Shown in pieces: positions 22,299 to 42,655 of a DNA stretch of 46,690 nucleotides. Location: assembly GCA_030647555.1 (NCBI GenBank), contig JAUSJG010000013.1, forward strand, positions 76,086-122,775. The letters are read 5' to 3'. The first letter of the stretch is position 1. Every line of letters begins with the position of its first letter. The notes under the pieces were generated by a model. The model ran no database searches and had not been told where the DNA came from. It was given only the letters and a program-made list of their open reading frames with translations. The stretch comes from a bacterium (GTDB lineage: Bacteria > Patescibacteriota > Andersenbacteria > UBA10190 > CAIZMI01). The position numbers and the translations under genes were made by a program.

Positions 22299-22823
22299 AT
22301 GTTACTAGAAGTGGAGCGTAAAATAAAGAGTATGCCAATCCTGACAAAGCAGAATTTGTCCATTTTGCTTGATAAAAAGAAGGATGCGGTTGATTACTGG
22401 GTAAAAAAAATGCTAAAAAGCGGTGTGCTAATTAAATTAAAAAATGGGGTTTACGCGTCGCGTTATTATGTCGATCTGGTAAGCCAAAATCCGGAGGATA
22501 AAACGAAATATCTTGAATACCTAGCAAATGTTTTAAGAAGTCCGTCATATGTTTCGCTGGAATACGTTTTATCGAAAGGAAATGTTACAGCTGAAGCGGT
22601 ATTTAAAATAACCTCGGTGACCACAAAAACGGCGCGAGTCTATCAGACAGAACTCGGCACTTTTTCCTATCGTCAGATCAAACAGGAATTGTTTAATGGC
22701 TATCAAAATATTTTATGGCGCGACAAACAAATCAAAGAGGCTTCTTTGGAAAAAGCGTTAGCCGATTTACAATATTTGAATAAAGGGGCGGATACTTCAA
22801 GATACAACAATGTTAATCGATAA
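22299..22823 (+). CDS. AbiEi-like antitoxin / transcriptional regulator
   Basis: This is a 174-residue protein. The N-terminal ~60 residues form a winged-helix-like region: LTKQNLSILLDKKKDAVDYWVKKMLKSG then LIKLKNGVYASRYY, the usual start of AbiEi-type antitoxins. The C-terminal part (SPSYVSLEYVLSKGN...TARVYQTELGTFSYRQI) also matches this group, which autoregulates the operon and blocks the toxin. It overlaps the toxin gene by 14 nt. Its promoter is the best consensus promoter on this part of the window. Confidence 0.85.
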   Translation: MLLEVERKIKSMPILTKQNLSILLDKKKDAVDYWVKKMLKSGVLIKLKNGVYASRYYVDLVSQNPEDKTKYLEYLANVLRSPSYVSLEYVLSKGNVTAEAVFKITSVTTKTARVYQTELGTFSYRQIKQELFNGYQNILWRDKQIKEASLEKALADLQYLNKGADTSRYNNVNR

Positions 22824-23649
22824 TTTAAGGCAAACAGTGGAGGCTAACAAAAGCGTGATTAAACCGCTTTATTTAAGGAACCTGTTAAAAGAAGAGTTGC
22901 AAAATTACATTTTAAATTTTATTTATAATAGCAAGGAATATAAAGAGCTGATATTTACCGGAGGCACTTGCTTGCGCAAAATATACGGGTTGCCACGTCT
23001 TTCTGAAGATTTGGATTTCGATTTTTTGAGCAAGTTTAGCGTAAGTAAATTTGCTGATGATCTAAAAAAATACTTTTGGGAAACCTTGCAGTACAAGCAA
23101 GCGGAAACAAAAATCAGTGGTAATGGGAATACGGTATTTATTAAGTTGCCGGTTTTGAAAAGTTTGGGGTTCAGTAATGAAGAAGTATTATTCGTGCGCT
23201 GTGATTTCTCGGAAGAATCGTTGGGGAGTTATAAATTAGAAACAAGCTCTCTCTCGACCAGGGATTTTACTTTCTTTGTGCGCAATTACAATTTAGAAAC
23301 GCTTTTTGCCAATAAAATTAGGGCATTTTTAAATCGCGATTTTTTTAACGGCGACGATCAAGAAATTCCATTTAAGGCCAGAGATGTTTTTGATCTGGTT
23401 TGGTTTTTGGAAAAGGCTAAAAAAAGCGATAGAAATTTTACGCCGAATTGGAAACGGCTCGAATGTGCTTTTCCCGACAAATCGCGCAATGAAGTTTTGA
23501 AGATGGTACTTGAAAAAGTGAAAAATATCAAAGAAAGTGAGATAAAAAAAGATCTCGAACCTTTTATCGAATCCAGCCAAAGTGTTGAAGCGTTCAGTGA
23601 GTCTTTTAAGGAAATCATTAAAAACGGTTTTGAGGACTATCTAAAATAA
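22810..23649 (+). CDS. AbiEii-family nucleotidyltransferase toxin
   Basis: This is a 279-residue protein. The nucleotidyltransferase motif is complete: FTGGTCLRKIYGLPRLSEDLDFDF, with G-G-T at 51-53 and S-E-D-L-D-F-D at 65-71. NLETLFANKIRAFLNRDF...KARDVFDLVWFL near 160-200 carries the conserved K...R...D-x-x-D-L helix of the AbiEii family. Members of the family block growth by nucleotide transfer in a type IV toxin-antitoxin pair and give abortive infection. The gene is coupled to its AbiEi-like partner by overlap. This pair is the more canonical of the two in the window. Confidence 0.9.
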   Translation: MLIDNLRQTVEANKSVIKPLYLRNLLKEELQNYILNFIYNSKEYKELIFTGGTCLRKIYGLPRLSEDLDFDFLSKFSVSKFADDLKKYFWETLQYKQAETKISGNGNTVFIKLPVLKSLGFSNEEVLFVRCDFSEESLGSYKLETSSLSTRDFTFFVRNYNLETLFANKIRAFLNRDFFNGDDQEIPFKARDVFDLVWFLEKAKKSDRNFTPNWKRLECAFPDKSRNEVLKMVLEKVKNIKESEIKKDLEPFIESSQSVEAFSESFKEIIKNGFEDYLK

Positions 23650-23727: not shown

Positions 23728-24079
23728 TCCCGGGTAGCTCAATGGCAGAGCAACTGGCTGTCAATCAGTAGATTGACCCTGAGCAGTGTCGAAGGGTTGA
23801 AAATGGCAGCTTCCTCGAGTAATCGAGGTTGAAAAACAGGGTGAATTGCCCGCTAACACAGCGGGTCCGCTGAAATAGCGGATCGGGAAGCCTAAATCCT
23901 TAACAGGACAGGGTAATCCGCAGCCAAGCTTTTTTCCAAGTGGAGAATTGAAGGTTCAGAGACTCACAGCGCCCTGCATCCCACCGCAGTGTCGAGGATG
24001 ATGAGATAGTCCACGCCATATTGAAAAATATGAATTAAGTGTAACCAGTAGGTTGTCGGTTCGAGTCCGACCCCGGGAG
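23728..24079 (+). tRNA. tRNA-Asn(GUU), interrupted by a group I intron
   Basis: Exon 1 is 23728-23761 and exon 2 is 24042-24079. Joined, they give acceptor TCCCGGG/CCCGGGA, D arm GCTC/GAGC, anticodon stem ACTGG/CCAGT with loop CTGTTAA (anticodon GTT), and T arm GTCGG-TTCGAGT-CCGAC. The intron lies between anticodon positions 35 and 36. CCA is not encoded (tail GCA). Exon 1 ends in U and the intron ends in G, as group I splicing requires. Confidence 0.9.
23762..24041 (+). ncRNA. group I self-splicing intron in tRNA-Asn
   Basis: This 280-nt intron has no ORF. The conserved strings are visible in order: P-type GAATTGCCCGC (23843-23853), Q AATCCGCAGCC (23915-23925), R GTTCAGAGACT (23954-23964) and S AGATAGTCC (24004-24012). 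GACT of R pairs with AGTC of S as P7, and terminal G 24041 is the omega G. The exon end CUGU can pair with GCAG (23783-23786), leaving the diagnostic U.G at the 5' splice site (P1). Subgroup IC3 is likely, as for other bacterial tRNA introns. Confidence 0.88.
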
Positions 24080-26893: not shown

Positions 26894-28246
26894 TCAGACA
26901 CAAATTTTTGCGTTATTTTCGAGCGACAAAGTTTGATTGTGAAGTACAAGTTGGGTTCGTAGGCACGAAAGTACCTCTCGTTTTTCTTCTCGTGTTCCTT
27001 CCTTGAGTACGTATTTTGCATAACTTCTTATATCCACTTTTGGCGACGCTGGATTGTTAGATATATGTAGCACGCCTTCTGCAAATTTTTGGTAGCGTGC
27101 TAACTCTCTTGAAAGTTTTTCTTGGACGCAGATTTCATCTACGTTTATGTTGTCTATCAAGCTTAATAGTTGATTTAGGAGTTCTTCTTCTCGAATGTAT
27201 GGTTCTTTGCAGGCCACTCGTTTTCCTTGACTGCAGTGATAATAAACATATCGCCGTCTTGTCCCGTCAGAAATATTCTTAAACTTTTCTTCTGGTGTGA
27301 TGCCTGATCCACAACTTCCGCATTTTATTAATTTGTTAAAATCGAACTCTTTGGTTCCACTCGTCCTTTTTTGGAATGTCCCCAAATTTTCTTGAGCAAT
27401 ATCGAATACCTCTTTTGTAATAATTGATTCATGTCCAACTTGATACCATTTGCCACTTTCTCTTGGGTACTCAAATTGTCCGTAGTAGTAGGGATCTCGG
27501 AGCATGATATAAATTGTGCTCAATACAATCTTCTTACCTGATCTTGTTGTGAAATCTGTTTCGTTGTTTAACCAGTGTAAAATCTTATGTCCGCTATATC
27601 CTTCGTAAGCGACTTTTTCAAACACCTGCTTGATTAATGGTGCACGCACTAAATCCAATTCAACCTTCTTTTGTCCTTTCTTTGGGTAACGATTATTGAG
27701 ATAACCAAGCGGGGAAACGCCGGGGCGATATCCCATTTCACACTTTGCACGAAGTCCACGTTTCACGTTCAATCCACGATTATCATTTTCGAGCTTCGCT
27801 TGTGAACAAAGGATCATCAATAGAAATTTTTCATTGGGGGAATTGCGGAAGTTTTGGCCATGGGTGCGGATCTCGTGCAAAAGCCCCTGATCCATCAAAT
27901 CAACCAGTATCCCCAAATCTCCGGCGTTTCTACTTAAACGATCGGGTGCCCATGTCAGAACGCCATTGAATTGTTTACCTCTTATATCCGCCAACATCCG
28001 CATATACTCTGGCCGTTGTCCTGAATCCTTTGCGGAATGACTTTCTTTGCGAATATCGACTACATTGATCCCATCTCGTTTAGCCATCTCGAGCATCTCT
28101 TTAATCTGAGAATCTATCGAAAGCGCTTGAAGTTCATCGCTTTCCGATGATTTTCTGGCGTAGAGGCAGTATCGAGTGTTGTCCACAGCAAGGGAGACAG
28201 TACCGCCACTGTCAAAGGAAGGCGAGGCCAGAAAATAACACAGCAC
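26894..28246 (-). CDS. large serine recombinase (site-specific integrase)
   Basis: The frame has 450 codons from GTG 28246. GTG 28186 (V-D-N-T-R-Y...) may be the true start and would give 430 residues. The resolvase domain opens with RYCLYARKSSESDELQALSIDSQ (catalytic Ser 33 in the long numbering) and contains WAPDRLSRNAGDLGILVDLMD. The recombinase domain has GYRPGVSPLGYLNN, and the zinc ribbon has CGSCGSGITPE...YYHCSQGK. A coiled C-terminus follows. These enzymes integrate and excise phages and islands. It is transcribed away from the structured RNA that begins 33 nt upstream. It is intact, unlike the relic at 5.0-5.6 kb. Confidence 0.93.
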   Translation of the reverse strand: MLCYFLASPSFDSGGTVSLAVDNTRYCLYARKSSESDELQALSIDSQIKEMLEMAKRDGINVVDIRKESHSAKDSGQRPEYMRMLADIRGKQFNGVLTWAPDRLSRNAGDLGILVDLMDQGLLHEIRTHGQNFRNSPNEKFLLMILCSQAKLENDNRGLNVKRGLRAKCEMGYRPGVSPLGYLNNRYPKKGQKKVELDLVRAPLIKQVFEKVAYEGYSGHKILHWLNNETDFTTRSGKKIVLSTIYIMLRDPYYYGQFEYPRESGKWYQVGHESIITKEVFDIAQENLGTFQKRTSGTKEFDFNKLIKCGSCGSGITPEEKFKNISDGTRRRYVYYHCSQGKRVACKEPYIREEELLNQLLSLIDNINVDEICVQEKLSRELARYQKFAEGVLHISNNPASPKVDIRSYAKYVLKEGTREEKREVLSCLRTQLVLHNQTLSLENNAKICV

Positions 28247-28278: not shown

Positions 28279-28307
28279 TTGAATTAAAGGGCCTTTTAAG
28301 CTACAAC
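28279..28307 (+). promoter_or_regulatory. promoter of structured RNA copy 1 (TTGAAT-N17-TACAAC)
   Basis: TTGAAT (28279-28284) and TACAAC (28302-28307) are 17 bp apart. The equivalent promoter of copy 2 (41061-41089) has the same spacing and the shared string AAGCTACAAC. Confidence 0.7.
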
Positions 28308-28313
28308 AGATAC

Positions 28314-28491
28314 ATCACTTTATGAATATCTAATCACCTGAAAAAATCTAAGGTTGCCTAAACTTCGCTTCGGCGGAGCATGGCACAAAAACGTTAGGAA
28401 TACTGAACCCGTCGTTCAGCACGTTCCTAACGTCATACAGGGAAACTTGTATGGGTGGTCGCAAGATCACCGGCTGGCGACGGGCTTTGTG
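28314..28491 (+). ncRNA. conserved structured RNA with pseudoknot, copy 1
   Basis: In order: TGCC (28355-28358) with GGCA (28382-28385) enclose the hairpin CTTCGC-TTCG-GCGGAG. Next is a 10-bp stem ACGTTAGGAA/TTCCTAACGT (28391-28400, 28424-28433) topped by CTGAA/TTCAG with loop CCCGTCG. Then comes CATACA/TGTATG (28434-28453), and then GGTGGTC-GCAA-GATCACC (28454-28471). Finally GGCTGGCGACGGGCTTTGTG. The loop CCCGTC (28408-28413) is complementary to GACGGG (28479-28484), a pseudoknot. Copy 2 keeps every helix with compensatory changes. Function and family are unknown. The next ORF starts 35 nt later. Confidence 0.85.
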
Positions 28492-28525
28492 TTTTACCGC
28501 CAGGTTAATTTCTTCAAGAAATACC

Positions 28526-29602
28526 ATGGCGATCGTTATCTCAAAAAATGGCAAAAATGCAGTCAAGATTGATAAGACCAATTTTGACCAAGAAGACCAT
28601 TTGCAAAAATATATTTTTGATAATCCCGATAGTCTTCCGTTGTATGAAATAAAAGAAGATATCCGACTTTTGATTTTGGCACGGGAATTTCCCACACAGA
28701 GCGGTCCGATTGACGCAATTGGCATAGATAAGGAAGGCGAAATCTATATTGTAGAAACGAAACTCTATAAAAACACCGATAAACGTATCGTAGTTGCACA
28801 AATTCTCGATTATGGCGCATCACTCTGGAGGCACTCCAATGATTTTAGTGAGTTTTTAGCGACACTTGATCAGCATACGCAAAAAGCATTTAATCTGCGA
28901 ACAACGGACAAAATAAAGGAATTTTTTCAGATATCAGATGAAGATGTCGAAATTCTGATAGAAAAAGTAAAGTCTAATCTCGGAGATGGAATATTCCATT
29001 TTGTGATTCCGATGGACAAATTGGATGACCGACTTAAGGATCTTATTCTTTACATTAATCAGAATAGCCAGTTTGATATTTATGCCGTCGAATTGGAGTA
29101 CTACAAACACGCTGAATACGAAATAATTATCCCGAAAATATTTGGAGCGGAAGTGAAAAAAGACATAAATGTTTCGTCAGCTAATGGATCTCGTAGAAGG
29201 TGGACGGAAGCGGAAATGTTGGATGACGCAAAACAAAAACTTTCCAACGAGGAATATGTGGCCTTTGAGCGGATATATGAGTTTTCAAAACAAAACGCTA
29301 CAGAGATTCGACTGGGGACGGGTTCTTATGGTTCGTTTAGCCCAATTTTTGAAAAATTATCCAACAAATCACTTTTTACACTTTCTACTGATAAACGGTT
29401 GGCATTCAATTTTGAATGGATCACAAAAGACAACGAGCGTACGGCGGAAATATTCAAAACTAAACTGGAATCAATTGGGTTAACGTTTCCGGACAACTAC
29501 AAAACTATTCGACCCAGTATAATGGCAACAGAATGGCTACCCAAGACGGAACAATTTCTACAAATCATATCAGAGATGATAAATGTAAATAGAAAACAAT
29601 AG
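28526..29602 (+). CDS. NucS/PD-(D/E)XK-type nuclease protein
   Basis: The product has 358 residues from ATG 28526. A longer frame to 28451 exists but lies in the structured RNA. Residues 59-80 read SGPIDAIGIDKEGEIYIVETKL, with Asp 63, Glu 77 and Lys 79 as PD-(D/E)XK metal ligands, followed by VVAQILDYGASLW. This is the arrangement of NucS/DUF91-like nuclease domains. A second region (about 225-350) is WTEAEMLDDAKQKLSNEEY...GTGSYGSFSPIF, unknown to me, perhaps a DNA- or nucleotide-sensing part. It lies just behind structured RNA copy 1. A defence role is inferred. Confidence 0.75.
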   Translation: MAIVISKNGKNAVKIDKTNFDQEDHLQKYIFDNPDSLPLYEIKEDIRLLILAREFPTQSGPIDAIGIDKEGEIYIVETKLYKNTDKRIVVAQILDYGASLWRHSNDFSEFLATLDQHTQKAFNLRTTDKIKEFFQISDEDVEILIEKVKSNLGDGIFHFVIPMDKLDDRLKDLILYINQNSQFDIYAVELEYYKHAEYEIIIPKIFGAEVKKDINVSSANGSRRRWTEAEMLDDAKQKLSNEEYVAFERIYEFSKQNATEIRLGTGSYGSFSPIFEKLSNKSLFTLSTDKRLAFNFEWITKDNERTAEIFKTKLESIGLTFPDNYKTIRPSIMATEWLPKTEQFLQIISEMINVNRKQ

Positions 29603-29659: not shown

Positions 29660-29983
29660 ATGCCCAAACCCAAATCTCTACCTAAAAAGGCGCAATGTCG
29701 GAAAATTGTTTTTGAGCGTGATCGCGATGGAATTATCTTGCCGACATTAAGAAATAGCGAGATTGTCAATAATTTGTTTAAGGAGACCAAGAAGCTGGAT
29801 GTCTTAAAACAAGTATTAGGCAAAGATTATACGACATATTTTGCTAGTACTTACTTTGAACTGCATCGCCAAAATGTTTTCTTTCAATCAAGGAAAAATG
29901 CTAGCAAGGCAAGCGCAAGATGGCGAATGATTGATCAACTTAATAAAAAGTGGCTGGCAGAAAAAAACCGTAAAAGTCTATAA
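29660..29983 (+). CDS. small basic protein of unknown function
   Basis: This 107-residue, Lys/Arg-rich protein starts MPKPKSLPKKAQCRKIVFERD and has VNNLFKETKKLDVLKQVLGKDYTTYFASTYFE, with predicted helices. It has no known motif. It overlaps the convergent terminase gene by 6 nt at the stop codons. Its length and charge suggest a small DNA-binding phage or island protein. It is moderately likely to be real. Confidence 0.55.
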   Translation: MPKPKSLPKKAQCRKIVFERDRDGIILPTLRNSEIVNNLFKETKKLDVLKQVLGKDYTTYFASTYFELHRQNVFFQSRKNASKASARWRMIDQLNKKWLAEKNRKSL

Positions 29984-31426
29984 TCCAATTGGTTTAAATG
30001 TAAAACCCCTTGCGCAACGTGTATCGTTTTCAATAATTTTATGTCCCAAAATTGAGAAAGCGTCAGCTAAGTCATCATGTTTTTCAGTACCGAATCCCGT
30101 CAGCTGATTAATAAGATTTTCGGCACCATGTTCAGGGAAAAGAATTTTCCCACTTTGAATGTGATGAGTAATAGTAGCCAACCGAGCTCGTTTATCATCT
30201 CCGTGTACTTGCACACCTTCTGCTTCATAACCCTGTTGTTCTAAATCTTGCACAAGTGATTTTTGGTAACCGACATCTTCAATAAACAATTTCGCGTCTT
30301 GCAAATTTTCTGACATAAGTTTGACACGATTTATTTGTTCCGGATATGTTAGTCGCTCATTGACTGGATTGGGCAAAATATATGCACGCATATTATCTCT
30401 TCTTCCGAAAACCATTGCAGCTACCATGGCCGTATAATCTGCAGTATCTTTTTTAGAAATTGCCAGGTCAACTCCAATTGCGGTATAGCGATAATCACCG
30501 TCCCACTGTTTTGGTAATTTAGGATAATATTGAATCCAATCAGGATGTACCACTCGTTCTTGATCAATGATGATGCGGAGCAGATATTCTCGTTGCCATG
30601 ATGCTTCTGAAGCAATACTTCGTTTAAGAGTTTCTATCTGTGCCATACTGGGAAATTTTCCCGGCCATGTAATATTCTTGTTTTCATCGATCAACGGATA
30701 CCAATAAAACTTGCCATCGAGATTTTTATGATCAATTCGTTCTTTGAGACGCATCAGAAGGGAATCATCATGAAGTAAATTTCCGATGAGGATCATTTTT
30801 GTGATCCCCGGTTGTCCTGCAGGCACGACTTCACCCGTGAGCCAACCGAATGTGCGGTCGCGTCCTTCTTTTGTTTTGACCGAATTTAAATCTTCGACGT
30901 CATCACAAATTATTAAATCGGGACGGTATTGTTGGTTACGAATACCACGAATGCTTTGTTCGCTAGAGGCGACGGTGATACGAGCGTTGTATTTCGGAAT
31001 CACAATAGATCCTAAACCCCACTGATCAGTGTCTTCTTCAAAAGCAACAAAATCAGAACGCAGAAGATCATTGGTTTCCAGCTCACGTCGCAGGTTCATC
31101 ATGTGATATCTTGCCTGTGCTTGAGTCTGTGACAAAATCAAAACGAATTTACATTGCATAACGCCGATGATTGCCCAAATAGGATACGAGAGTGTCATGA
31201 TCGTTGATTTTCCTGATCCCCTAAAAGCAACAATCACTGAAAGTTTCTCGTTAGTATTTTCAGTAATTGAAAAGAAGTCTTTGTGCATCGGTGCCGTCGG
31301 ATTGGTGAGATAGTGTTGCAAATAGATTGCAAAGAACCACTCATGGCTATTAAATGCCAAATTGGTGCGCACTGCACGCGACGCAATTATTTCTTGAATT
31401 GGATTAATTTGATTTAGGTTGTTCAT
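29978..31426 (-). CDS. phage terminase large subunit
   Basis: This 482-residue protein packages phage DNA. The ATPase half has Walker A AFRGSGKST (67-75), the segment SSEQSIRGIRNQQYRPDLIICDDVED with Walker B Asp 175-Asp 176, and the coupling region ILIGNLLHDDSL. The nuclease half has Asp 320 in IGVDLAISKKDTADY, a middle Glu 383-Asp 384 in FIEDVGYQKS, and HDDLADAF at 450-457. All catalytic acidic residues are in place, so it is probably active. It overlaps the upstream small-subunit gene by 23 nt. No portal, protease or capsid gene is in the window. Confidence 0.93.
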   Translation of the reverse strand: MNNLNQINPIQEIIASRAVRTNLAFNSHEWFFAIYLQHYLTNPTAPMHKDFFSITENTNEKLSVIVAFRGSGKSTIMTLSYPIWAIIGVMQCKFVLILSQTQAQARYHMMNLRRELETNDLLRSDFVAFEEDTDQWGLGSIVIPKYNARITVASSEQSIRGIRNQQYRPDLIICDDVEDLNSVKTKEGRDRTFGWLTGEVVPAGQPGITKMILIGNLLHDDSLLMRLKERIDHKNLDGKFYWYPLIDENKNITWPGKFPSMAQIETLKRSIASEASWQREYLLRIIIDQERVVHPDWIQYYPKLPKQWDGDYRYTAIGVDLAISKKDTADYTAMVAAMVFGRRDNMRAYILPNPVNERLTYPEQINRVKLMSENLQDAKLFIEDVGYQKSLVQDLEQQGYEAEGVQVHGDDKRARLATITHHIQSGKILFPEHGAENLINQLTGFGTEKHDDLADAFSILGHKIIENDTRCARGFTFKPIGL

Positions 31427-31853
31427 CGTTTTGAATGTTATTAATTAAAGATTCTTGTTCGTGTGATAGGCCTGCAAGCAAAAGTGATTGTTTCACCATT
31501 TCTGCCTGTTCTGGTGTAAGCTGTTCCGGAATGCGCTGATTAACATCCAGTTGCACTTTGGTGGCATAAGTTGGGTGATGATGTTTCAGCCAAAATATTA
31601 TGCCGGGCATATTTTGATTTTTAATTGCCGCAATTAATTGTGCTTCCGCCATGTCATTGATGAGGTTGCTTCCTTCAGAAAGGGCAGTGTCTGTTGCTTC
31701 CGCAAAATCCTTATCATCTTTATGCCAGCGGTAATAAGTTGCCCTGCTTATTCCCGCTTTTTCACAAGCGTATTGAATGATTGGAGTTTTCTTCAGCTGT
31801 TCGATCAATCCATCTTTTTCTTTCTTTTGGCGTTCAAAAATTGTTTCGTTCAT
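31404..31853 (-). CDS. terminase small-subunit-like DNA-binding protein
   Basis: This is a 149-residue protein. Residues 22-45 read TPIIQYACEKAGISRATYYRWHKDD, a helix-turn-helix of the type found in phage small terminase subunits, which recognise the packaging site. SNLINDMAEAQLIAAIKNQNMPGIIFWLKHHHPTY matches the central oligomerisation region of these proteins. It overlaps both neighbours (4 nt with the methyltransferase, 23 nt with the large subunit), as expected for a packaging operon. Confidence 0.85.
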   Translation of the reverse strand: MNETIFERQKKEKDGLIEQLKKTPIIQYACEKAGISRATYYRWHKDDKDFAEATDTALSEGSNLINDMAEAQLIAAIKNQNMPGIIFWLKHHHPTYATKVQLDVNQRIPEQLTPEQAEMVKQSLLLAGLSHEQESLINNIQNDEQPKSN

Positions 31854-33199
31854 AAAATTTTCATTCCTTTCTGGCCTGTAAGTTTCTCCCAGCGTTTTTT
31901 AATTACTTCGGCATACACGGGTGATTTTTCCATGATGTAACAACGGCGCTTCATTTTTGTTGCTGCGATGAGAGTTGAACCGCTCCCACCAAATGGCTCA
32001 ACAACAAGGTCGCCTCTTTTTGTGAGCACTTTTATGTAGGGGATTAATATTTCAACTGGTTTGGTTCCAAACACTACCCCTTGTCCAGAATGTTTTTCAT
32101 CGCTAGCGTTATATTCGATGAAATCCGTCGGCATTATCTTCTTGCCTTTTTTGTACCCTTCCCAGTGAGGTTTTCCAGAAATGGCGTAGAGTGCCGTTTC
32201 GTATTCTTCTTGTAGGCCATCTTGTTCGGGTGTATAATTAAATTCGAGATCAGTACTTTTACTTGCCCCAACCATCGCGATATCGTGCTTGGAAAAAAAC
32301 TTATACTTCGCAGAGAATCCCTGATGTCGATTCGGCAAGTGCCACACGATCATGTTCTTTACCCTCCAATGTTTTTCCATCTCACCCCAAATCTCACGAA
32401 TATTTTTCCATAATTCGTAGACAATGATAGAGAAACTAGGTTTTTGGATTTCTGCTATGTTATTCATCCAGAGTTCAGTAAAGTCTGGAGGCAGGGAATC
32501 TGTTTCGAGATACTGCCGGTCGCGTTTGTAACCAAAACCTTTCGTTGCCGTTCCGTGTTTGGTTTTACCGTGAAGGTAATCCAAAATGTAAGGTGGGTCC
32601 GTCAGGCACATATCGGCTTTTTCCCCGTTCATTAGTTTGAAAACATCTTCTTTTATGGTGGAATCTCCAACCATGAGCCGGCTTTCTCCGAGCTGTACGA
32701 CATCACCCTTCTTTAGCTCAATTTCCTTGATATCCAGTTTGGCGAGTTCTTTTTGCAGATCAAATTCTTCAGGCGTATCGTCTACTTCAAAGATTTGATC
32801 TATTTCTTCACTCGAAAAACCGATGCCTGCTAACAGATTTGGATCGAACTCTGCGAGTAAATCTAGATCGAATTCACCTGCATTTTTATTTAAGCGAATA
32901 TTCAGTTCTTTTTCTTTTTCCTGATCTGGTATGTTTACAAAAACCACAGGTACGGTTTTTTCGCCGAGTTCCTTCAACGATTGAATGCGCATATGTCCAC
33001 CGATAAGCACATTCTCACGTCCAGCTCCGCAGTTCACTATAACTGGGTCAACAGCACCAAAACGGCGAATACTTTCTTTTAAGTTTTCCATCGCTTCAGG
33101 TGTCCACTTGCGAGGATTGTATACGCTTGGCTTGAGTTGGCTGATGTCTACATAAGTGATATCAATTTTCTGATTTTGGTTAGACTTTAAATTTTTCAT
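31850..33199 (-). CDS. ParB-domain / DNA methyltransferase fusion
   Basis: This is a 449-residue protein. The N-terminal ParB/Srx domain has SVYNPRKWTPEAMENLKESI and VLIGGHMRIQSLKELG (65-79). After a linker, the DNA adenine/cytosine-N4 methyltransferase domain has DPPYILDYL (201-209, catalytic DPPY) and, near the end, EPFGGSGSTLIAATKM (SAM-binding, about 402-415). This places it in the beta order. Such fusions are typical of phages, next to terminase genes, where they may modify phage DNA to escape restriction. It is the first gene of the packaging operon, behind a long leader with a candidate attenuator. Confidence 0.9.
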   Translation of the reverse strand: MKNLKSNQNQKIDITYVDISQLKPSVYNPRKWTPEAMENLKESIRRFGAVDPVIVNCGAGRENVLIGGHMRIQSLKELGEKTVPVVFVNIPDQEKEKELNIRLNKNAGEFDLDLLAEFDPNLLAGIGFSSEEIDQIFEVDDTPEEFDLQKELAKLDIKEIELKKGDVVQLGESRLMVGDSTIKEDVFKLMNGEKADMCLTDPPYILDYLHGKTKHGTATKGFGYKRDRQYLETDSLPPDFTELWMNNIAEIQKPSFSIIVYELWKNIREIWGEMEKHWRVKNMIVWHLPNRHQGFSAKYKFFSKHDIAMVGASKSTDLEFNYTPEQDGLQEEYETALYAISGKPHWEGYKKGKKIMPTDFIEYNASDEKHSGQGVVFGTKPVEILIPYIKVLTKRGDLVVEPFGGSGSTLIAATKMKRRCYIMEKSPVYAEVIKKRWEKLTGQKGMKIL

Positions 33200-33267
33200 C
33201 GTATTATTTCTTACAGATAAAAATGGAGTGTTATTAAAACACCTTTGATCTGTATTTTTTGTCTAAC

Positions 33268-33290
33268 AAAAAAACTGATCAGTAGGATCA
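33268..33290 (-). terminator. intrinsic terminator in the packaging-operon leader
   Basis: On the minus strand TGATC/GATCA with a 5-nt loop is followed by G and seven T. It ends the candidate small RNA before the methyltransferase gene. Confidence 0.6.
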
Positions 33291-33398
33291 AGCAATCAAG
33301 CTTGATTTCACTGAACAGTCCATTCGTTTTTTTCGCCGGTCGAGGCGTACTGTTCGACCACTTACTCTATTTCTATGACTTCGAAAAGATCAACTACC
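33268..33398 (-). ncRNA. candidate small RNA or attenuated leader of the packaging operon
   Basis: A near-consensus minus-strand promoter (TTGACA-N16-TATAAT) is followed about 130 nt later by TGATC-CTACT-GATCA plus a seven-T run. In between are the hairpin GGTCGA...TCGACC (complement of 33341-33362) and AATCAAGCTTGATT-type palindromes. The ATG of the methyltransferase is a further 68 nt downstream. It could be a stand-alone sRNA or a leader whose terminator is overridden. I see no similarity to the 28.3/41.1-kb RNA. Confidence 0.55.
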
Positions 33399-33403
33399 CT
33401 CGC

Positions 33404-33431
33404 ATTATATAACCACCCAAAAAGATGTCAA
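33404..33431 (-). promoter_or_regulatory. minus-strand promoter TTGACA-N16-TATAAT
   Basis: The complement of 33426-33431 is TTGACA and that of 33404-33409 is TATAAT, a perfect match to both boxes. It fires toward the packaging operon. Confidence 0.8.
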
Positions 33432-33438
33432 TAGAGTG

Positions 33439-33467
33439 TTGATTTTTGGCTTAAACGAGCATATTCT
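33439..33467 (+). promoter_or_regulatory. plus-strand promoter TTGATT-N17-TATTCT for the mod-AIPR-res operon
   Basis: TTGATT (33439-33444) and TATTCT (33462-33467) have ideal spacing. The leader to ATG 33517 is about 43 nt and contains the hairpin ATTTTATTCTAAATAAAAT. The promoter is back-to-back with the minus-strand one; their -35 boxes are 7 nt apart. Confidence 0.6.
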
Positions 33468-33516
33468 ATGAGTTAAAGGGGTATTTTATTCTAAATAAAA
33501 TTTCTGTAGAAATGTC

Positions 33517-35613
33517 ATGAAACTGTCGGATATTGAAAAAAGGGATGTAATCAAATACTTGGAAGCTGGGAAGCCACTGCCGGAGAAGTATCGTTTTTTG
33601 CTGTTTGACGATGACCGTGAAGTTGAGCTTGTTTGGAATGGGAAAACAAATGAAGTGACAAATGTGGTTCTACCTTTTCAAGTGATAGAACAAATAGACG
33701 AGCCGAGGAGTGATGGAAAGATTAATATGCAAAATACACTTTTCGATACTTCTGGAAGACAGATTTCTGGTTGGACTAACAAGTTAATTTGGGGTGATAA
33801 CAAACTCATTCTTTCTTCGCTTAAAAACGGCCCATTGCGAAAAGAAATAGAAGCGCAGGGTGGTTTGAAATTGATTTATATTGATCCTCCATTTGATGTG
33901 GGTGCGGATTTTTCAATGAATATTGAAATTGGTGAAGAGTCTTTTACAAAAAAGCCTTCAGTGATTGAAGAAATTGCTTTTCGTGATACTTGGGGGAATG
34001 GCGCTGATAGCTTCATTGCAATGATTTATGAGCGATTAAAATTGATGTATGACCTATTAGCGGATGATGGAAGTATTTATGTGCATTGCGACTGGAGAGT
34101 GAATAGCTACATGCGTCTAGTGTTAGATGAGATTTTCGGAAAGAATAATTTCAGAAACGAAATAATTTGGTATTATTACAATAAAATGCAAGGGAATGTG
34201 GGTCGTTTTGCCTCAAATCACGATACGATTATTTGGTACTCAAAGACTAATAAATATAAATTTTTACCAATTAGAGAGAAGCGGGAGCAAATGGTGAAAC
34301 AAATAAAAAGAGTATGGGATAAGAACACTAGTAAACTTGTGAATGCGAAAGACGAAAATGGTCATGTTATTTATATTGAGGCTACAGAACGAACAATTGA
34401 CGATGTCTGGCGGATTTCGATGCTACAACCAGCAGATAAGACTCAGAATTTAGAGTATCCAACACAAAAGCCAGAAGCACTTATTGAAAGAATTATAAGA
34501 GCCTCTTCAAATGAAGGCGATCTTGTCGCCGACTTTTTCTGTGGCTCGGGATCGACCATTGCTGTTGCAGAAAAACTTGGAAGAAAATGGATCGGATCTG
34601 ATTTGGGAAAATTTGGTATTCATACTTCTAGAAAGAGAATGGTTGGAGTGCAGAGAGAACTAAAAAAAGCAAGTAAGGATTTTCGCGCATTTGAAGTATT
34701 AAACGTGGGGAGATATGAACGTGAAAATTATCTATCCGTAAATGATGATTTGCGTGCAGAGGAAAAAGCCAAACAAGCAGAAAGAAAAGAAAAAGAATTT
34801 GTGAAATTAATTATATCGGCATATAAGGCGGAATCAGTAGAATCGTTTGTGAATATTGTAGGCAAGAAAAGAGATCGTTTGGTGGCAGTGGGTCCAATAA
34901 ATATGCCGGTTTCCTCAAAACTAGTGCAAGACATTGTGACGGAGTGTAAAGAAAAAGGAATTACTAAAATTGATGTTCTTGGCTTCGATTATGAGATGGG
35001 CTTGGATTTTTCAGAATATAAAGATCATGGAATTGATATTGCTTTTCGGATTATTCCAAGAGAAGTATTTGATAAAAAAGTAGTTGAAAAAGGGCAAGTA
35101 AAATTTTATGATGTGGCATTTATTGAAGTTAAGTCAATTGTTAAAGGCGGAAAAAACAATAAAGAAGTAGCGATTGAGCTTACTGACTTTTCTGTTTTCT
35201 ATAATCAAGACGATTCGGGGGAAATAGCGGAAGCGTTGCGACCGGGCGCGTCAAAGATCGTTGTGGAAGACGGGCAAGTCGTAAAAATTTCAAAAGATAA
35301 AAAAAGTGAGGAAATTTCAAAAGAAATTTTAACAAAAAAATGGAGCGATTGGATTGACTATTGGGCTGTGGACTTCGATTTTGCTAGTAGAAAAGAAATA
35401 ATCAAAGTTATGGAAAATGGCAAGGAAAAAGAAGTCTGGACTGGCGATTATATTTTCGATAACGAATGGCAGAGTTTTAGAACAAAAAAGAACAGAAATC
35501 TGGATCTCATTTCCGCGTTCAAGCCTGTACCAAAAGGAAACTACAAAGTCGCGGTTAAAGTCGTAGATATTTTTGGAAACGACACGACAAAAGTAATTGA
35601 GGTTAGGGTTTGA
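33517..35613 (+). CDS. DNA methyltransferase, type III-like Mod subunit
   Basis: This is a 698-residue protein. IYIDPPFDVGADF has DPPF at 123-126, and DFFCGSGSTIAVAEKLGRKW has the SAM loop FCGSGST at 341-347. The order (catalytic motif before SAM motif) is the beta class used by type III Mod proteins. LSSLKNGPLRKEIEAQGG precedes it as usual. Residues 430-690 form a long extra domain with coiled and beta parts, perhaps for target recognition or Res contact. Mod methylates host sites so that the restriction motor spares them. The AIPR gene begins 5 nt after its stop. Confidence 0.92.
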   Translation: MKLSDIEKRDVIKYLEAGKPLPEKYRFLLFDDDREVELVWNGKTNEVTNVVLPFQVIEQIDEPRSDGKINMQNTLFDTSGRQISGWTNKLIWGDNKLILSSLKNGPLRKEIEAQGGLKLIYIDPPFDVGADFSMNIEIGEESFTKKPSVIEEIAFRDTWGNGADSFIAMIYERLKLMYDLLADDGSIYVHCDWRVNSYMRLVLDEIFGKNNFRNEIIWYYYNKMQGNVGRFASNHDTIIWYSKTNKYKFLPIREKREQMVKQIKRVWDKNTSKLVNAKDENGHVIYIEATERTIDDVWRISMLQPADKTQNLEYPTQKPEALIERIIRASSNEGDLVADFFCGSGSTIAVAEKLGRKWIGSDLGKFGIHTSRKRMVGVQRELKKASKDFRAFEVLNVGRYERENYLSVNDDLRAEEKAKQAERKEKEFVKLIISAYKAESVESFVNIVGKKRDRLVAVGPINMPVSSKLVQDIVTECKEKGITKIDVLGFDYEMGLDFSEYKDHGIDIAFRIIPREVFDKKVVEKGQVKFYDVAFIEVKSIVKGGKNNKEVAIELTDFSVFYNQDDSGEIAEALRPGASKIVVEDGQVVKISKDKKSEEISKEILTKKWSDWIDYWAVDFDFASRKEIIKVMENGKEKEVWTGDYIFDNEWQSFRTKKNRNLDLISAFKPVPKGNYKVAVKVVDIFGNDTTKVIEVRV

Positions 35614-35617
35614 AATT

Positions 35618-37303
35618 ATGAATCTAAATTACCAATTGATTAAAAAAGAAGTTAATGGAATTGATAAGAAACTTGCAACACAAGCCAAGGCTCATGACGA
35701 CGGAAAGAAATTTTCGTTGTTGGTGTTAAAAAAACTGTCTGGATACAGAGGGCAGAAATTATTAAAATTTTATTCAGACAGCGGTGGTGATCATCAAATA
35801 GACTCAGTTTATCTGTATGAAGGTAAAGATGAATTAGTAATCAATATTGTCACGTGTATTTTTAGTTCTAAACCTCAAGCTACGTTTTCGGATAAAGATA
35901 TAACAGATTTTATTATTGGTCTGCACTATTTGTTGTTTGGAGGAGATGCTCCGGTGGATATAAACGAAAAAATAAAGGAAATAAAATCAGAAATCGATGA
36001 GCAAAAAGAATCTTACGAAAACAATTACTCAGTAAGTGTTAAATTTGTTTCAAGTGCTGATGTGGTATTGAATCATGATAGTAAAGCTCAAATGACAAAG
36101 TTTCAGAATGAAATAACCACATCGGGTATAGATTTTTCTTTTGAGGAAATAAATGGTCAAAATATTTCCGCAATGTTTTCTTCTAGAGTTGTTCTGAAAA
36201 CGGCGATTCCAATAAAACTATCAGGAAGATCATATTATCCACTTACCGCAAAAGAAGGGTTTATATGTAGATTGCCAGTGAATGAATTAATAAAAATTTA
36301 CTTTGGATTTAAAGACGGTTTAAAGGATTACAAAGGATATGGCGACTATCTATTCACGGATAATATTAGAAAAGATTTGGGTATAGAGAGAAAAATTAAT
36401 CAAAAAATTTACGAAACGGCTACTGATGATGCCGCGTCGGAAGAATTCGAGTATTTTAATAACGGTTTAACGATTCTTTACGATGAAATTTCTGGTGCTG
36501 TGACAGGAGATAGTCCGTCAATATATTTAAAAGGACTGCAGGTTGTAAATGGATGCCAAACGGTAAATACTTTAATTAGGGCACATAATGATGGTAAGCT
36601 TTCTGAAAGTATTTATATTACTTGTAGATTTATTAAGCGCACGGATGATCAAAAATTTGTTCAGTCTGTTATAACTTACACAAACTCGCAAAATGCGATT
36701 TCTGAGAGAGATTTACATTCCAATGATCCAGTCCAGTATAATATTCAGACCTTGTTGGACAAGTATCATGTATTTTATGAACGCAAACTGAATGAATTCA
36801 AGGATGTCTCGGAAACAGCATTGATAATTGATGCTCTCGATGCTGCACAGGCCTATCTTTGTTGTGAACTTAAAAGACCAAACAAGGCGAAGCAGGAAAA
36901 GAGGAAATTATTTGGTGTTCTTTATGAGGAGATATTTGATTCTAAGAAGTCTGATCTGGCGCATCGATTGCTTATTTCACACTTGGTCTTGGATGCTGTT
37001 TTGGTGAGACAGGCTGAACATAGACAGAAGAAACTAAAGACAAAAAAAGCAGGAAAGACTCCAAAATATAAGATAGATGATCTTGTCATTTCACATGGTT
37101 CATATCACATAGCGGCAAGATTGTATCAAAAGTGGTTTGGGGCTGATTCAGATTTAGAAAAAACCGCAAAGAATAAGAAGTTACCAAAGTGCTTCAACGA
37201 AGACTATAAAAAGACGATAGAAGAAATCGCTATGACAATTGAAAAATCTGGAACACAACGCGAAGATATACCAAAATATTTCAAAGCAAACCACTTATTA
37301 TAA
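35618..37303 (+). CDS. AIPR-family protein (abortive infection phage resistance)
   Basis: The product has 561 residues from ATG 35618. The upstream in-frame TTG at 35597 would overlap mod and is less likely. Residues about 285-390 read FEYFNNGLTILYDEI...KGLQVVNGCQTVNTLIRAH...VQSVITYTNSQNAISERDL, the hallmark of the AIPR family (PF10592), known from lactococcal abortive infection. The F-N-N-G and G-x-Q-x-V-N-G-x-Q-T motifs are exact. The biochemical activity of AIPR is not well defined; the first 150 residues may hold a nuclease-like part. Its place between mod and res suggests it is a third component of the restriction system. Confidence 0.88.
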   Translation: MNLNYQLIKKEVNGIDKKLATQAKAHDDGKKFSLLVLKKLSGYRGQKLLKFYSDSGGDHQIDSVYLYEGKDELVINIVTCIFSSKPQATFSDKDITDFIIGLHYLLFGGDAPVDINEKIKEIKSEIDEQKESYENNYSVSVKFVSSADVVLNHDSKAQMTKFQNEITTSGIDFSFEEINGQNISAMFSSRVVLKTAIPIKLSGRSYYPLTAKEGFICRLPVNELIKIYFGFKDGLKDYKGYGDYLFTDNIRKDLGIERKINQKIYETATDDAASEEFEYFNNGLTILYDEISGAVTGDSPSIYLKGLQVVNGCQTVNTLIRAHNDGKLSESIYITCRFIKRTDDQKFVQSVITYTNSQNAISERDLHSNDPVQYNIQTLLDKYHVFYERKLNEFKDVSETALIIDALDAAQAYLCCELKRPNKAKQEKRKLFGVLYEEIFDSKKSDLAHRLLISHLVLDAVLVRQAEHRQKKLKTKKAGKTPKYKIDDLVISHGSYHIAARLYQKWFGADSDLEKTAKNKKLPKCFNEDYKKTIEEIAMTIEKSGTQREDIPKYFKANHLL

Positions 37304-37307
37304 TATT

Positions 37308-41060: not shown

Positions 41061-41089
41061 TTGATTATTAACTCTTTTCAAGCTACAAC
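41061..41089 (+). promoter_or_regulatory. promoter of structured RNA copy 2 (TTGATT-N17-TACAAC)
   Basis: TTGATT (41061-41066) and TACAAC (41084-41089) are 17 bp apart, matching the promoter of copy 1 in spacing and -10 sequence although the spacer sequences differ. Confidence 0.7.
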
Positions 41090-41095
41090 ATAGAT

Positions 41096-41247
41096 ACAAC
41101 TAATTGCCTAACCCTCGCTCAAACCGAGGTATGGTGCCGGAAAACTGTCTAGGATACTGACCCCGTCGTTCAGCATACCTAGACAGTCATATCCCGAAAG
41201 GGTTATGGGTAGTCGAAAGACTACCGGCTGGCGGCGGGCTTTGTGTA
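41096..41247 (+). ncRNA. conserved structured RNA with pseudoknot, copy 2
   Basis: It has the same architecture as copy 1. TGCC (41105-41108) with GGTG enclose CCTCG/CGAGG. Next is the 10-bp stem ACTGTCTAGG/CCTAGACAGT (41144-41153, 41178-41187), topped by CTGA/TCAG. Then CATA-CCC-GAAA-GGG-TATG (41188-41207) and GGTAGTC-GAAA-GACTACC (41208-41225), then GGCTGGCGGCGGGCTTTGTG. Loop CCCGTC (41162-41167) pairs with GGCGGG (41233-41238), using a U.G where copy 1 has U-A. The secreted nuclease gene starts 41 nt later. Confidence 0.85.
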
Positions 41248-41287
41248 TCTGTCCCTAGCCGTTCATTCATAAAACTGTCTAGGTGCC

Positions 41288-42010
41288 ATGAAAAATAAAT
41301 ATCTTTTATTTTCTACGTTAGCTTTTTTCTTTTTAGTATTTTTTAGTACTCATCCGGTTTTTGCTGTTGCTAAACCAACTCCACTCTATCCGGTTGTAAA
41401 AGTTGTTGATGGCGATACCATAGACGTAAAAATCGGTATCAAAGTTGAGCGTCTTCGCTTGATCGGAATGGACACTCCAGAAACAGTTGATCCGAGAAAG
41501 CCAGTCCAATGTTTTGGCAAAGAAGCTTCTAATAAAGCTAAATCAATACTCTCAGGGAAAAGCGTTAGTTTGAAAAGCGACCCAACGCAAGGAGATCGGG
41601 ACAAATACGGCAGACTATTGCGCTACGTATATTTATCCGATGGTACTAACTTTGAAAAACTTATGATTAGCCAAGGGTATGCTTATGAGTACACCTATAT
41701 TATTCCGTACAAGTATCAAGCTGAATTCAAGAAAGCCCAAAAAGATGCTCAATTAAAGAAACGCGGATTGTGGAGTCCAACTATCTGTAATGGCAGTACA
41801 AATCAAGCGTCAAAGAAAGTAGCGACAACCCTCACACCAAAACCTACACAACCAAAGTCAGCTCAATCTGTCACAACTCCGGTAGTAAAGAAAAGCGTGA
41901 ATAACCTCTGTCATGCCAAAGGGACGAAATACTACGATCAAACAAAAGTGTTTACCTCTTATTCTACACTTCAAGCATGTATAAAAAGTGGTGGAAAGTT
42001 ACCGAAATAA
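41288..42010 (+). CDS. secreted thermonuclease (SNase family)
   Basis: This is a 240-residue protein. A signal peptide (about 1-26, ending V-F-A) directs export. The SNase domain has VVDGDTIDVKI (Asp 41), ERLRLIGMDTPE (Arg 57, Asp 62, Glu 65) and DKYGRLLRYVYL (Arg in the catalytic pair), so the Ca-dependent nuclease site is complete. A Thr/Lys/Pro linker leads to a small C-terminal motif, NLCHAKGTKYYDQTKVF...LQACIKSGGKLP, with paired Cys, found on many secreted bacterial nucleases. It could feed a nucleotide-scavenging lifestyle or attack foreign DNA outside the cell (inference). Confidence 0.92.
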   Translation: MKNKYLLFSTLAFFFLVFFSTHPVFAVAKPTPLYPVVKVVDGDTIDVKIGIKVERLRLIGMDTPETVDPRKPVQCFGKEASNKAKSILSGKSVSLKSDPTQGDRDKYGRLLRYVYLSDGTNFEKLMISQGYAYEYTYIIPYKYQAEFKKAQKDAQLKKRGLWSPTICNGSTNQASKKVATTLTPKPTQPKSAQSVTTPVVKKSVNNLCHAKGTKYYDQTKVFTSYSTLQACIKSGGKLPK

Positions 42011-42112: not shown

Positions 42113-42646
42113 ATGAGCAAAATAATTTCACAAAATCTAAATATCGTCACCTTTATTATTTTTGTGTTATTGGCAGGTATTTTTGTAGCTCTATTGCTCC
42201 TTGTATATTTGAACAAAAATCGGAAAGATAATTTATCCTTAAAGCTTGATGAGCTTTATGCAAAAATAAAGGAGGATATTAAATTTTCTGTTGCCCCTAA
42301 GCATATGGAGTTATCTATCGGAGTGAATGAGCTTATGGATCTTGCTGTCGAAGTATGGCGCATTGAACAAAGGGTTGCTAAATCCGCTTCGAATTTACAG
42401 GAAAACCAGTTTAAGGGGTTAGAAAATTCCGTACAAAAATTGAAAAGGTACCTTGCCAAGTATGATATTGAAATAGTCGATTATAAAAATCAAAAATATA
42501 ATGATGGGCTTAATCTCGATATATTATCAGTTGAAAAAGATCCTACACTTCCAGAACCGATGGTAAAGGAGACTATTGAGCCCACCATCATGTGCAAGGG
42601 GCAAGTCGTTCGTAAAGCAAAAATAATTCTAATTAGCAACCATTAA
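42113..42646 (+). CDS. membrane-anchored GrpE-like protein
   Basis: This is a 177-residue protein. One transmembrane helix (about 10-33) is followed by helices (35-115), and a short beta-like C-terminal part reads LPEPMVKETIEPTIMCKGQVVRKAKIILI. The last block, P-x-V-x-E-T-I-x-P-x-I-x-x-x-G-x-x-x-x-x-A-x-V/I, matches the GrpE beta domain that opens the Hsp70 nucleotide cleft. It lies 10 nt before an Hsp70 gene. Together this suggests a membrane-tethered nucleotide-exchange factor dedicated to that Hsp70. A GrpE tethered to the membrane is unusual. Confidence 0.7.
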   Translation: MSKIISQNLNIVTFIIFVLLAGIFVALLLLVYLNKNRKDNLSLKLDELYAKIKEDIKFSVAPKHMELSIGVNELMDLAVEVWRIEQRVAKSASNLQENQFKGLENSVQKLKRYLAKYDIEIVDYKNQKYNDGLNLDILSVEKDPTLPEPMVKETIEPTIMCKGQVVRKAKIILISNH

Positions 42647-42655
42647 CTTTTCGGT

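What the first reader, a model, noticed from the sequence alone, without database searches (positions are those of the whole stretch)
28279..28525. Unrecognised pseudoknotted RNA (copy 1) with its own promoter, beside the serine recombinase
Directly visible: a promoter with 17-bp spacing, then four consecutive hairpins and a loop (CCCGTC) complementary to the 3' segment (GACGGG). Comparison with the second copy at 41.1 kb shows compensatory changes in the 10-bp stem (almost every pair changed, pairing kept) and in the GNRA-capped stem (G-C to A-T, G.T to G-C). The unpaired blocks TACTGA.CCCGTCGTTCAGCA and GGCTGGCG.CGGGCTTTGTG are nearly unchanged. Selection on both structure and sequence is the simplest explanation. 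I cannot match it to a ribozyme, riboswitch or guide RNA that I know. It lies head-to-head with an intact recombinase gene.
Basis: partly seen in the sequence, partly recalled or inferred. Interest (0 to 1): 0.88.

Follow-up and report, generated by a model that had tools for sequence, protein, structure and literature searches.

The report
LOOT leader RNA, a self-addressed switch
The hairpin-rich RNA is a member of LOOT, a known RNA family of unknown function; comparison of 251 relatives shows that it is the start of a messenger RNA, often with a strand that can pair either with its own stem or with the start site of the next gene, which suggests that LOOT is an RNA switch used by cargo genes of integrated viruses in ultra-small bacteria.

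Summary
The RNA is real but not unrecognised: Rfam identifies both copies as LOOT (RF03000; 83.4 and 68.8 bits), a family of unknown function. The stems and the CCCGTC/GACGGG pairing are confirmed. The pairing belongs to a longer helix of about 18 bp (S:S') that Rfam's model omits; it covaries strongly and explains both "unpaired conserved blocks".

New here: (1) LOOT is a 5' leader. A same-strand ATG lies a median 55 nt downstream in 94% of copies. (2) In 72 of 251 copies (three separately sampled sets) the 5' arm of the variable stem is repeated exactly (9-16 nt), ending just before or at the next gene's ATG; swapped arms give 0.06-0.16%. Homologous genes with different arms carry correspondingly different start-site copies. 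The 3' arm can therefore pair with its own stem or with the start site, at nearly equal energy. Copy 2 has this (12 nt before the nuclease gene); copy 1 does not. (3) LOOT lies near large serine recombinases (33 of 53 within 10 kb; 3.8 expected).

Best reading: a cis-acting pseudoknot switch on cargo genes of phage-like elements. Its signal, and its mode in the roughly 70% without the repeat, are unknown. No expression data were available.

The parts
28279..28307 (+). promoter of copy 1: TTGAAT, 17 bp, TACAAC
   Evidence: read directly; same layout in copy 2; -10-like hexamers enriched in relatives
28355..28471 (+). LOOT RNA copy 1, the part covered by Rfam RF03000
   Evidence: 83.4 bits, gathering score 46.4
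28355..28385 (+). P1 with internal loop CCUAAAC/GCAUGG, resembling the 11-nt GAAA tetraloop receptor, and inner hairpin P1a
   Evidence: CS line; invariant columns; receptor counts; receptor sequence in PMC11381326
28391..28400 (+). arm5 (X): 5' strand of the variable stem, ACGTTAGGAA; base 28400 is shared with S
   Evidence: no second exact copy of AACGTTAGGAA in the own genome
28400..28416 (+). S: 5' strand of the long-range helix, AUACUGAACCCGUCGUU; contains the 5' strand of Rfam's small hairpin P2a
28424..28433 (+). arm3 (X'): 3' strand of the variable stem
28434..28453 (+). P3 with GAAA tetraloop (loop GAAA in 178 of 187 relatives)
28454..28471 (+). P4, tetraloop variable
28476..28492 (+). 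S': 3' strand of the long-range helix, GGCGACGGGCUUUGUGU, outside Rfam's model; G+C core then U-rich end, terminator-like
28526..28602 (+). start of the gene led by copy 1 (coding sequence 28526-29602, unknown family; LOOT-led homologues form a seven-member cluster)
   Evidence: no Pfam or PDB hit
26894..28246 (-). large serine recombinase (integrase), head-to-head with copy 1
   Evidence: Pfam PF00239, PF07508, PF13408; PHROG 95 integrase
41061..41089 (+). promoter of copy 2: TTGATT, 17 bp, TACAAC
41105..41225 (+). LOOT RNA copy 2, the part covered by Rfam RF03000
   Evidence: 68.8 bits
41142..41153 (+). arm5 (X) of copy 2 with its lead-in, AAACTGTCTAGG
41154..41170 (+). S of copy 2
41178..41187 (+). 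arm3 (X') of copy 2, complementary both to arm5 and to the start-site copy
41230..41246 (+). S' of copy 2
41272..41283 (+). start-site copy of X, AAACTGTCTAGG, ending 4 nt before the ATG at 41288
41288..42010 (+). gene led by copy 2: staphylococcal-nuclease-like protein
   Evidence: Pfam PF00565, 1.2e-25

Best explanation
LOOT is a cis-acting leader RNA that controls the single gene behind it. Shown by comparison: it is co-directional with and just upstream of a gene; it folds through P1, the variable stem X:X', P3, P4 and an 18-bp long-range helix S:S'. The order X-S-X'-S' makes X:X' and S:S' a pseudoknot, and S:S' competes with the small Rfam hairpin P2a. In about 29% of copies a further copy of X lies at the translation start, so X' can pair with X inside LOOT or with the start site. 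Inferred: X' is the switching strand. When LOOT is folded with X:X' the start site is free and the gene is translated; when X' is released and takes the start-site copy, translation is blocked. The two pairings are nearly equal in energy, so the fold (GAAA loop in its receptor, S:S' against P2a), possibly with a bound signal, would tip the balance. S' ends in a U-rich stretch, so S:S' may also act as a conditional terminator; this could be the main control where no start-site copy exists, as in copy 1. The controlled genes are cargo of elements integrated by serine recombinases. The direction of control, the signal and the terminator role are not shown.
For: Leader position: 114/122, 64/70 and 63/64 copies have a same-strand ATG frame within 130 nt. 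Start-site repeat of at least 9 nt: 27/117, 12/69 and 33/64, against 0.06%, 0.14% and 0.16% for arms swapped between loci; none on the opposite strand of that zone, no excess upstream or farther downstream. In 40 of 41 copies of the first two sets the repeat ends from 4 nt inside to 9 nt before the ATG. 27 distinct matched X groups. Six clusters of homologous genes carry two or more different X, each matched at its own start site, e.g. DNA methyltransferases 7 of 8 matched with 7 different X, the MYKRIPV family 4 of 4 with 3. X at other start sites in nine genomes is at background, so the action is in cis. X':X and X':start-site energies differ by a median 0.5 kcal/mol; copy 2: -17.0 and -19.2; non-repeat copies average -5.2. 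S:S' covariation. No promoter-like excess between LOOT and the ATG (0.40 against 0.40 shuffled).
Against: About 70% of copies, including copy 1, have no start-site repeat and no other pairing with the start site above chance, so the switch as described cannot be the general mode. Part of the third set's high rate reflects shared ancestry (three X groups make 38 of 72 matches). No expression, probing or ligand data. Whether X:X' and the full S:S' can coexist sterically is unknown. Nested energies favour X:X' over S:S' by a median 7 kcal/mol. Downstream genes share no pathway, so no signal is suggested.
Confidence: 0.6

Rival explanations
1. LOOT is a stand-alone small RNA (Rfam's type), made from its own promoter and ended by S:S' as terminator, acting in trans; the gene behind it is incidental.
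For: Own promoter; S' has a G+C core followed at once by a U-rich stretch, 6.0 of 10 nt U; Rfam lists it as sRNA.
Against: Constant co-directional placement, mostly 35-90 nt before an ATG, no promoter-like excess after LOOT, start-site repeats only in the adjacent gene, arm of copy 1 not repeated elsewhere in its genome.
Confidence: 0.15
2. LOOT is a classical riboswitch: the GAAA/receptor-docked core binds a small ligand, and X' or S:S' is the expression platform, translational in some copies and transcriptional in others.
For: Invariant GAAA loop and receptor-like internal loop, conserved core with variable platform, leader position, mutually exclusive helices.
Against: Downstream genes are diverse (DNA methyltransferases, nucleases, zinc-ribbon and secreted proteins), unlike genes of one pathway; no conserved ligand pocket identified; conserved blocks are largely accounted for by pairing.
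Confidence: 0.2
3. The start-site repeat is a DNA-level relic: LOOT is a mobile insertion that copied its target, or the repeat arose by slippage, without function.
For: Repeats are direct and close; copies multiply with phage-like elements; some matched copies share ancestry.
Against: X is inside LOOT behind conserved P1, not at its edge; the repeat is confined to the bases just before or at the ATG; homologous genes carry different X with all three sites changed together; few half-decayed cases.
Confidence: 0.07
4. LOOT is a guide RNA for an RNA-guided protein (like HEARO/omega RNA, TIGR or IS110 bridge RNA), with X as target match.
For: A short target match adjacent to a recombinase-bearing element.
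Against: The match is hidden in a perfect stem, lies only in the next gene's start site, is about 10 nt, and no common effector gene appears among downstream neighbours. Neighbours on the other side were checked only for the recombinase, terminase and nuclease.
Confidence: 0.03

Closest known systems
LOOT RNA, Rfam RF03000
   Same: Both copies pass the gathering score over the whole model; P1, variable stem, P2a, P3 and P4 present and covarying
   Different: Rfam's model stops before S', has no long-range helix, no assigned function, and is typed as sRNA rather than leader; the start-site repeat is not in anything I could read. The original description (Weinberg and co-workers 2017, from memory) was not held. 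PMC7657543 notes 28 unexplained cross-covariations in LOOT
ermC-type translational attenuators
   Same: A strand that pairs alternatively with an upstream strand or with the ribosome-binding region (PMC5418344 for RBS sequestration and an alternative structure)
   Different: No conserved leader peptide in LOOT; a pseudoknotted, probably tetraloop-docked fold; many different strand sequences rather than one gene family
Riboswitches with translational or transcriptional platforms
   Same: Folded core in a 5' leader with mutually exclusive helices
   Different: No ligand known; no common pathway downstream
GAAA tetraloop / 11-nt receptor module
   Same: Invariant GAAA and CCUAA(A/C)...(C/U)AUGG, against CCUAAG/UAUGG (PMC11381326)
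   Different: Sixth receptor base and its partner differ from the canonical G.U; docking not tested

Membership tests
LOOT RNA (RF03000) | score above the curated threshold over the whole model | tested here: met
   83.4 and 68.8 bits against 46.4, model 1-121
LOOT RNA (RF03000) | the family's helices present and covarying | tested here: met
Riboswitch | located in the 5' leader of a gene it controls | tested here: met
   location only; control itself not testable here
Riboswitch | binds a small-molecule ligand | not testable with these tools
   needs probing
Riboswitch | downstream genes share a pathway or transport function (typical, not strictly required) | tested here: not met
ermC-type translational attenuator | translated leader peptide | tested here: not met
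   reading frames from the only recurrent AUG vary in length and frame
ermC-type translational attenuator | mutually exclusive helices, one covering the start region | tested here: met
   by sequence complementarity only, in 72 of 251 copies incl. copy 2; not copy 1
Intrinsic terminator | G+C-rich helix followed at once by a U tract | tested here: inconclusive
   met in form but the U-rich part also pairs and the loop holds about 60 nt of structure; no 3'-end data
Trans-acting sRNA | pairs with targets elsewhere | tested here: not met
   (one arm in the own genome, one X type in nine genomes)

The most novel reading that the evidence does not exclude
LOOT is a portable, self-addressed pseudoknot switch: a leader that carries a decoy copy of its own gene's translation start, so that one strand swaps between two nearly equal partners. 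At least 27 different address sequences have evolved; in the genome with most copies (seven LOOT) five different ones were seen. It serves as the standard control unit of cargo genes (notably DNA methyltransferases) in serine-integrase phages and related elements of Patescibacteria.
Probability: 0.4. Interest if true: 0.8.

Novelty: new variant of a known kind. Interest (0 to 1): 0.62.

Why it matters
LOOT has been a family without a function. These results turn it into a testable one: a gene leader whose variable stem copies its gene's start site, with a helix that the present model leaves out. They offer a possible explanation for the unusual covariation reported for LOOT (arms changing as blocks together with a third site). 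They also tie LOOT to integrated phage-like elements in a bacterial group that is hard to culture, where gene control in such elements is little known.

Tried and rejected
Trans targets of copy 1's arm in its genome: only LOOT itself has the 11-mer; one-mismatch hits do not exceed the reversed-pattern control. Trans regulon for the X type CCGTCCAAA in nine genomes: sites without LOOT are at background. Other LOOT segments pairing with the start site in copies without the repeat: no excess. Weak or decayed repeats in those copies: little or no excess. Conserved leader peptide: none. A second promoter between LOOT and the gene: no excess. Shine-Dalgarno loss in repeat copies: trend only, 3/40 against 25/137, p = 0.14. 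Weaker U tract in repeat copies: marginal, p about 0.04. Sequence search of the gene behind copy 1 against solved structures: no match. The original LOOT paper is not in the library.

Full report
Identity. Rfam's LOOT model (RF03000) matches window 28355-28471 at 83.4 bits and 41105-41225 at 68.8 bits, gathering score 46.4. The finding is therefore a member of a known family whose function is not stated. The only paper in the held library that discusses LOOT RNA in its text (PMC7657543) reports 28 cross-covariations as an extreme case without explanation. LOOT was found in 83 of 380 sampled genomes of the window's phylum, with up to 7 copies, and in none of 14 control genomes. A pattern scan of a public genome collection found relatives almost only in records named as Patescibacteria/CPR or left unnamed. 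I infer, but was not told, that the window is from that group.

Structure. In 41 diverse homologues aligned by sequence alone, the known helices covary: 325 two-sided cells against 44-101 in slid controls. The 12-bp core is 93.1% paired, 10 of 12 pairs have two-sided changes, 67 two-sided cells against 3-9 in slid controls. Six further outer pairs are supported, more weakly. The median helix is 18 positions long; only 3% of helices with swapped tails reach the median score. The order 5'-X-S-X'-S'-3' makes X:X' and S:S' a pseudoknot. S:S' overlaps the small hairpin P2a that Rfam draws inside S, so these two exclude each other at least in part. P3 has a GAAA loop in 178 of 187 relatives while P4's loop varies, and the internal loop of P1 reads CCUAA(A/C)...(C/U)AUGG, close to the 11-nt GAAA receptor CCUAAG/UAUGG (PMC11381326). 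Docking of P3 into P1 is an inference.

LOOT is a leader. A same-strand ATG reading frame starts within 130 nt of the Rfam end in 114 of 122, 64 of 70 and 63 of 64 copies, median 55 nt in the first set. -10-like hexamers are enriched 15-38 nt upstream (133 of 186 against 53), and there is no promoter-like excess between LOOT and the ATG.

The start-site repeat. In copy 2 the stem's 5' arm AAACTGTCTAGG (41142-41153) recurs at 41272-41283, four bases before the ATG of the nuclease gene. In the first set 27 of 117 copies have a repeat of at least 9 nt 20-100 nt downstream on the same strand, against 0.06% for arms swapped between loci; the opposite strand has none, and upstream and far-downstream zones are at chance. 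A set from other genomes gave 12 of 69 against 0.14%, a third gave 33 of 64 against 0.16%. In total 72 of 251, in 27 distinct sequence groups; three groups make 38 of the 72, so the third set's higher rate is partly shared ancestry. Counted by arm groups, 32 of 148 have at least one match. In all but one copy of the first two sets the repeat ends from 4 nt inside to 9 nt before the ATG. Contigs classed as viral show it too (L340, L341).

Three-site change. In six clusters of homologous downstream genes, members carry different X, and each matches its own start site. The DNA methyltransferase cluster has 7 of 8 matched with 7 different X; the MYKRIPV family 4 of 4 with 3; others include the MNNENTE pair G357/G248 (the cluster of 40 is joined loosely by low-complexity segments and is not relied on). 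Such coordinated change at three sites is expected if X' must pair with both partners, and is hard to explain by neutral repeats. Methyltransferases are matched in 9 of 10 cases against 63 of 241 other copies (Fisher p = 7e-5; grouping made after seeing the data). The pairings X':X and X':start site differ by a median 0.5 kcal/mol; copy 2: -17.0 against -19.2 (the printed mean for the start-site pairing is spoiled by failed rows, the median is not).

Cis action. The X type CCGTCCAAA before an ATG occurs in nine genomes at LOOT-led genes and otherwise at background. Copy 1's arm has no second exact copy in its genome.

Copy 1. It has no start-site repeat. About 70% of copies are like it, and no other pairing with the start site exceeds chance. 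For these the only visible device is S:S' against P2a; S' ends in a U-rich stretch (6.0 of 10 nt), so conditional termination is possible, but that U-rich part also pairs, which leaves the terminator reading open. Nested-fold energies put the X:X' state a median 7 kcal/mol below the S:S' state.

Surroundings. Homologues of the head-to-head recombinase occur beside many LOOT copies. Over 20 genomes with 57 such recombinases, 33 of 53 LOOT copies lie within 10 kb of one, against 3.8 expected. This null assumes random placement and ignores that both prefer variable regions. Terminase large subunits are also frequent. In the window the recombinase (PHROG integrase) and terminase genes at 29978-31853 indicate a phage-derived element; capsid genes were not seen among the proteins scanned. 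LOOT-led genes include DNA methyltransferases, nucleases, zinc-ribbon and secreted proteins, as expected of cargo genes.

What is shown and what is inferred. Shown by comparison: family membership, helices including S:S', leader position, start-site repeats with three-site change, cis specificity for the X type tested, recombinase association. Inferred: that X' switches partners in the cell, that pairing at the start site blocks translation, that S:S' may terminate transcription, and that some signal sets the balance. The idea that block-wise change of X explains the reported cross-covariations is also an inference.

Noticed in passing
window 23728-24033: Rfam finds a group I intron (23789-24033, 57.2 bits) directly behind a weak tRNA-like match (23728-23785, 29.9 bits): probably a tRNA gene with an intron.
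   Followed up: no
window 31850-39995: Defence-like block: ParB-domain methyltransferase, second DNA methyltransferase, AIPR protein, ResIII helicase with a weak TnsA-like end.
   Followed up: no
window 22810-23649: AbiEii-type nucleotidyltransferase toxin gene beside the primase and sigma-70 genes.
   Followed up: no
window 42113-45169: GrpE-like and Hsp70-like genes follow the LOOT-led nuclease gene; the GrpE match is weak.
   Followed up: no
L051 (G112:C3 17612 and 17988): Two LOOT copies some 240 nt apart, each leading a paralogous small gene (MPKFKIDFWFDQ / MPKYKIDIWFDQ): tandem duplication of leader plus gene.
   Followed up: partly
L259, L267, L291, L298: True LOOT copies on contigs binned as Gastranaerophilales, Bacteroidetes, Woesearchaeota and Lentisphaerae: mis-binning or transfer.
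   Followed up: partly
L336, L339: LOOT on viral contigs without an ATG frame seen in the usual place; the tail can form a different hairpin (CUACUCUUGG...), with a promoter-like TATAAT farther on.
   Followed up: no
upstream of LOOT in many loci, e.g. L119, L120: A conserved ACAATTTAAT-like stretch just before P1, near the presumed transcript start (in 107 of 186 loci), of unknown role.
   Followed up: no
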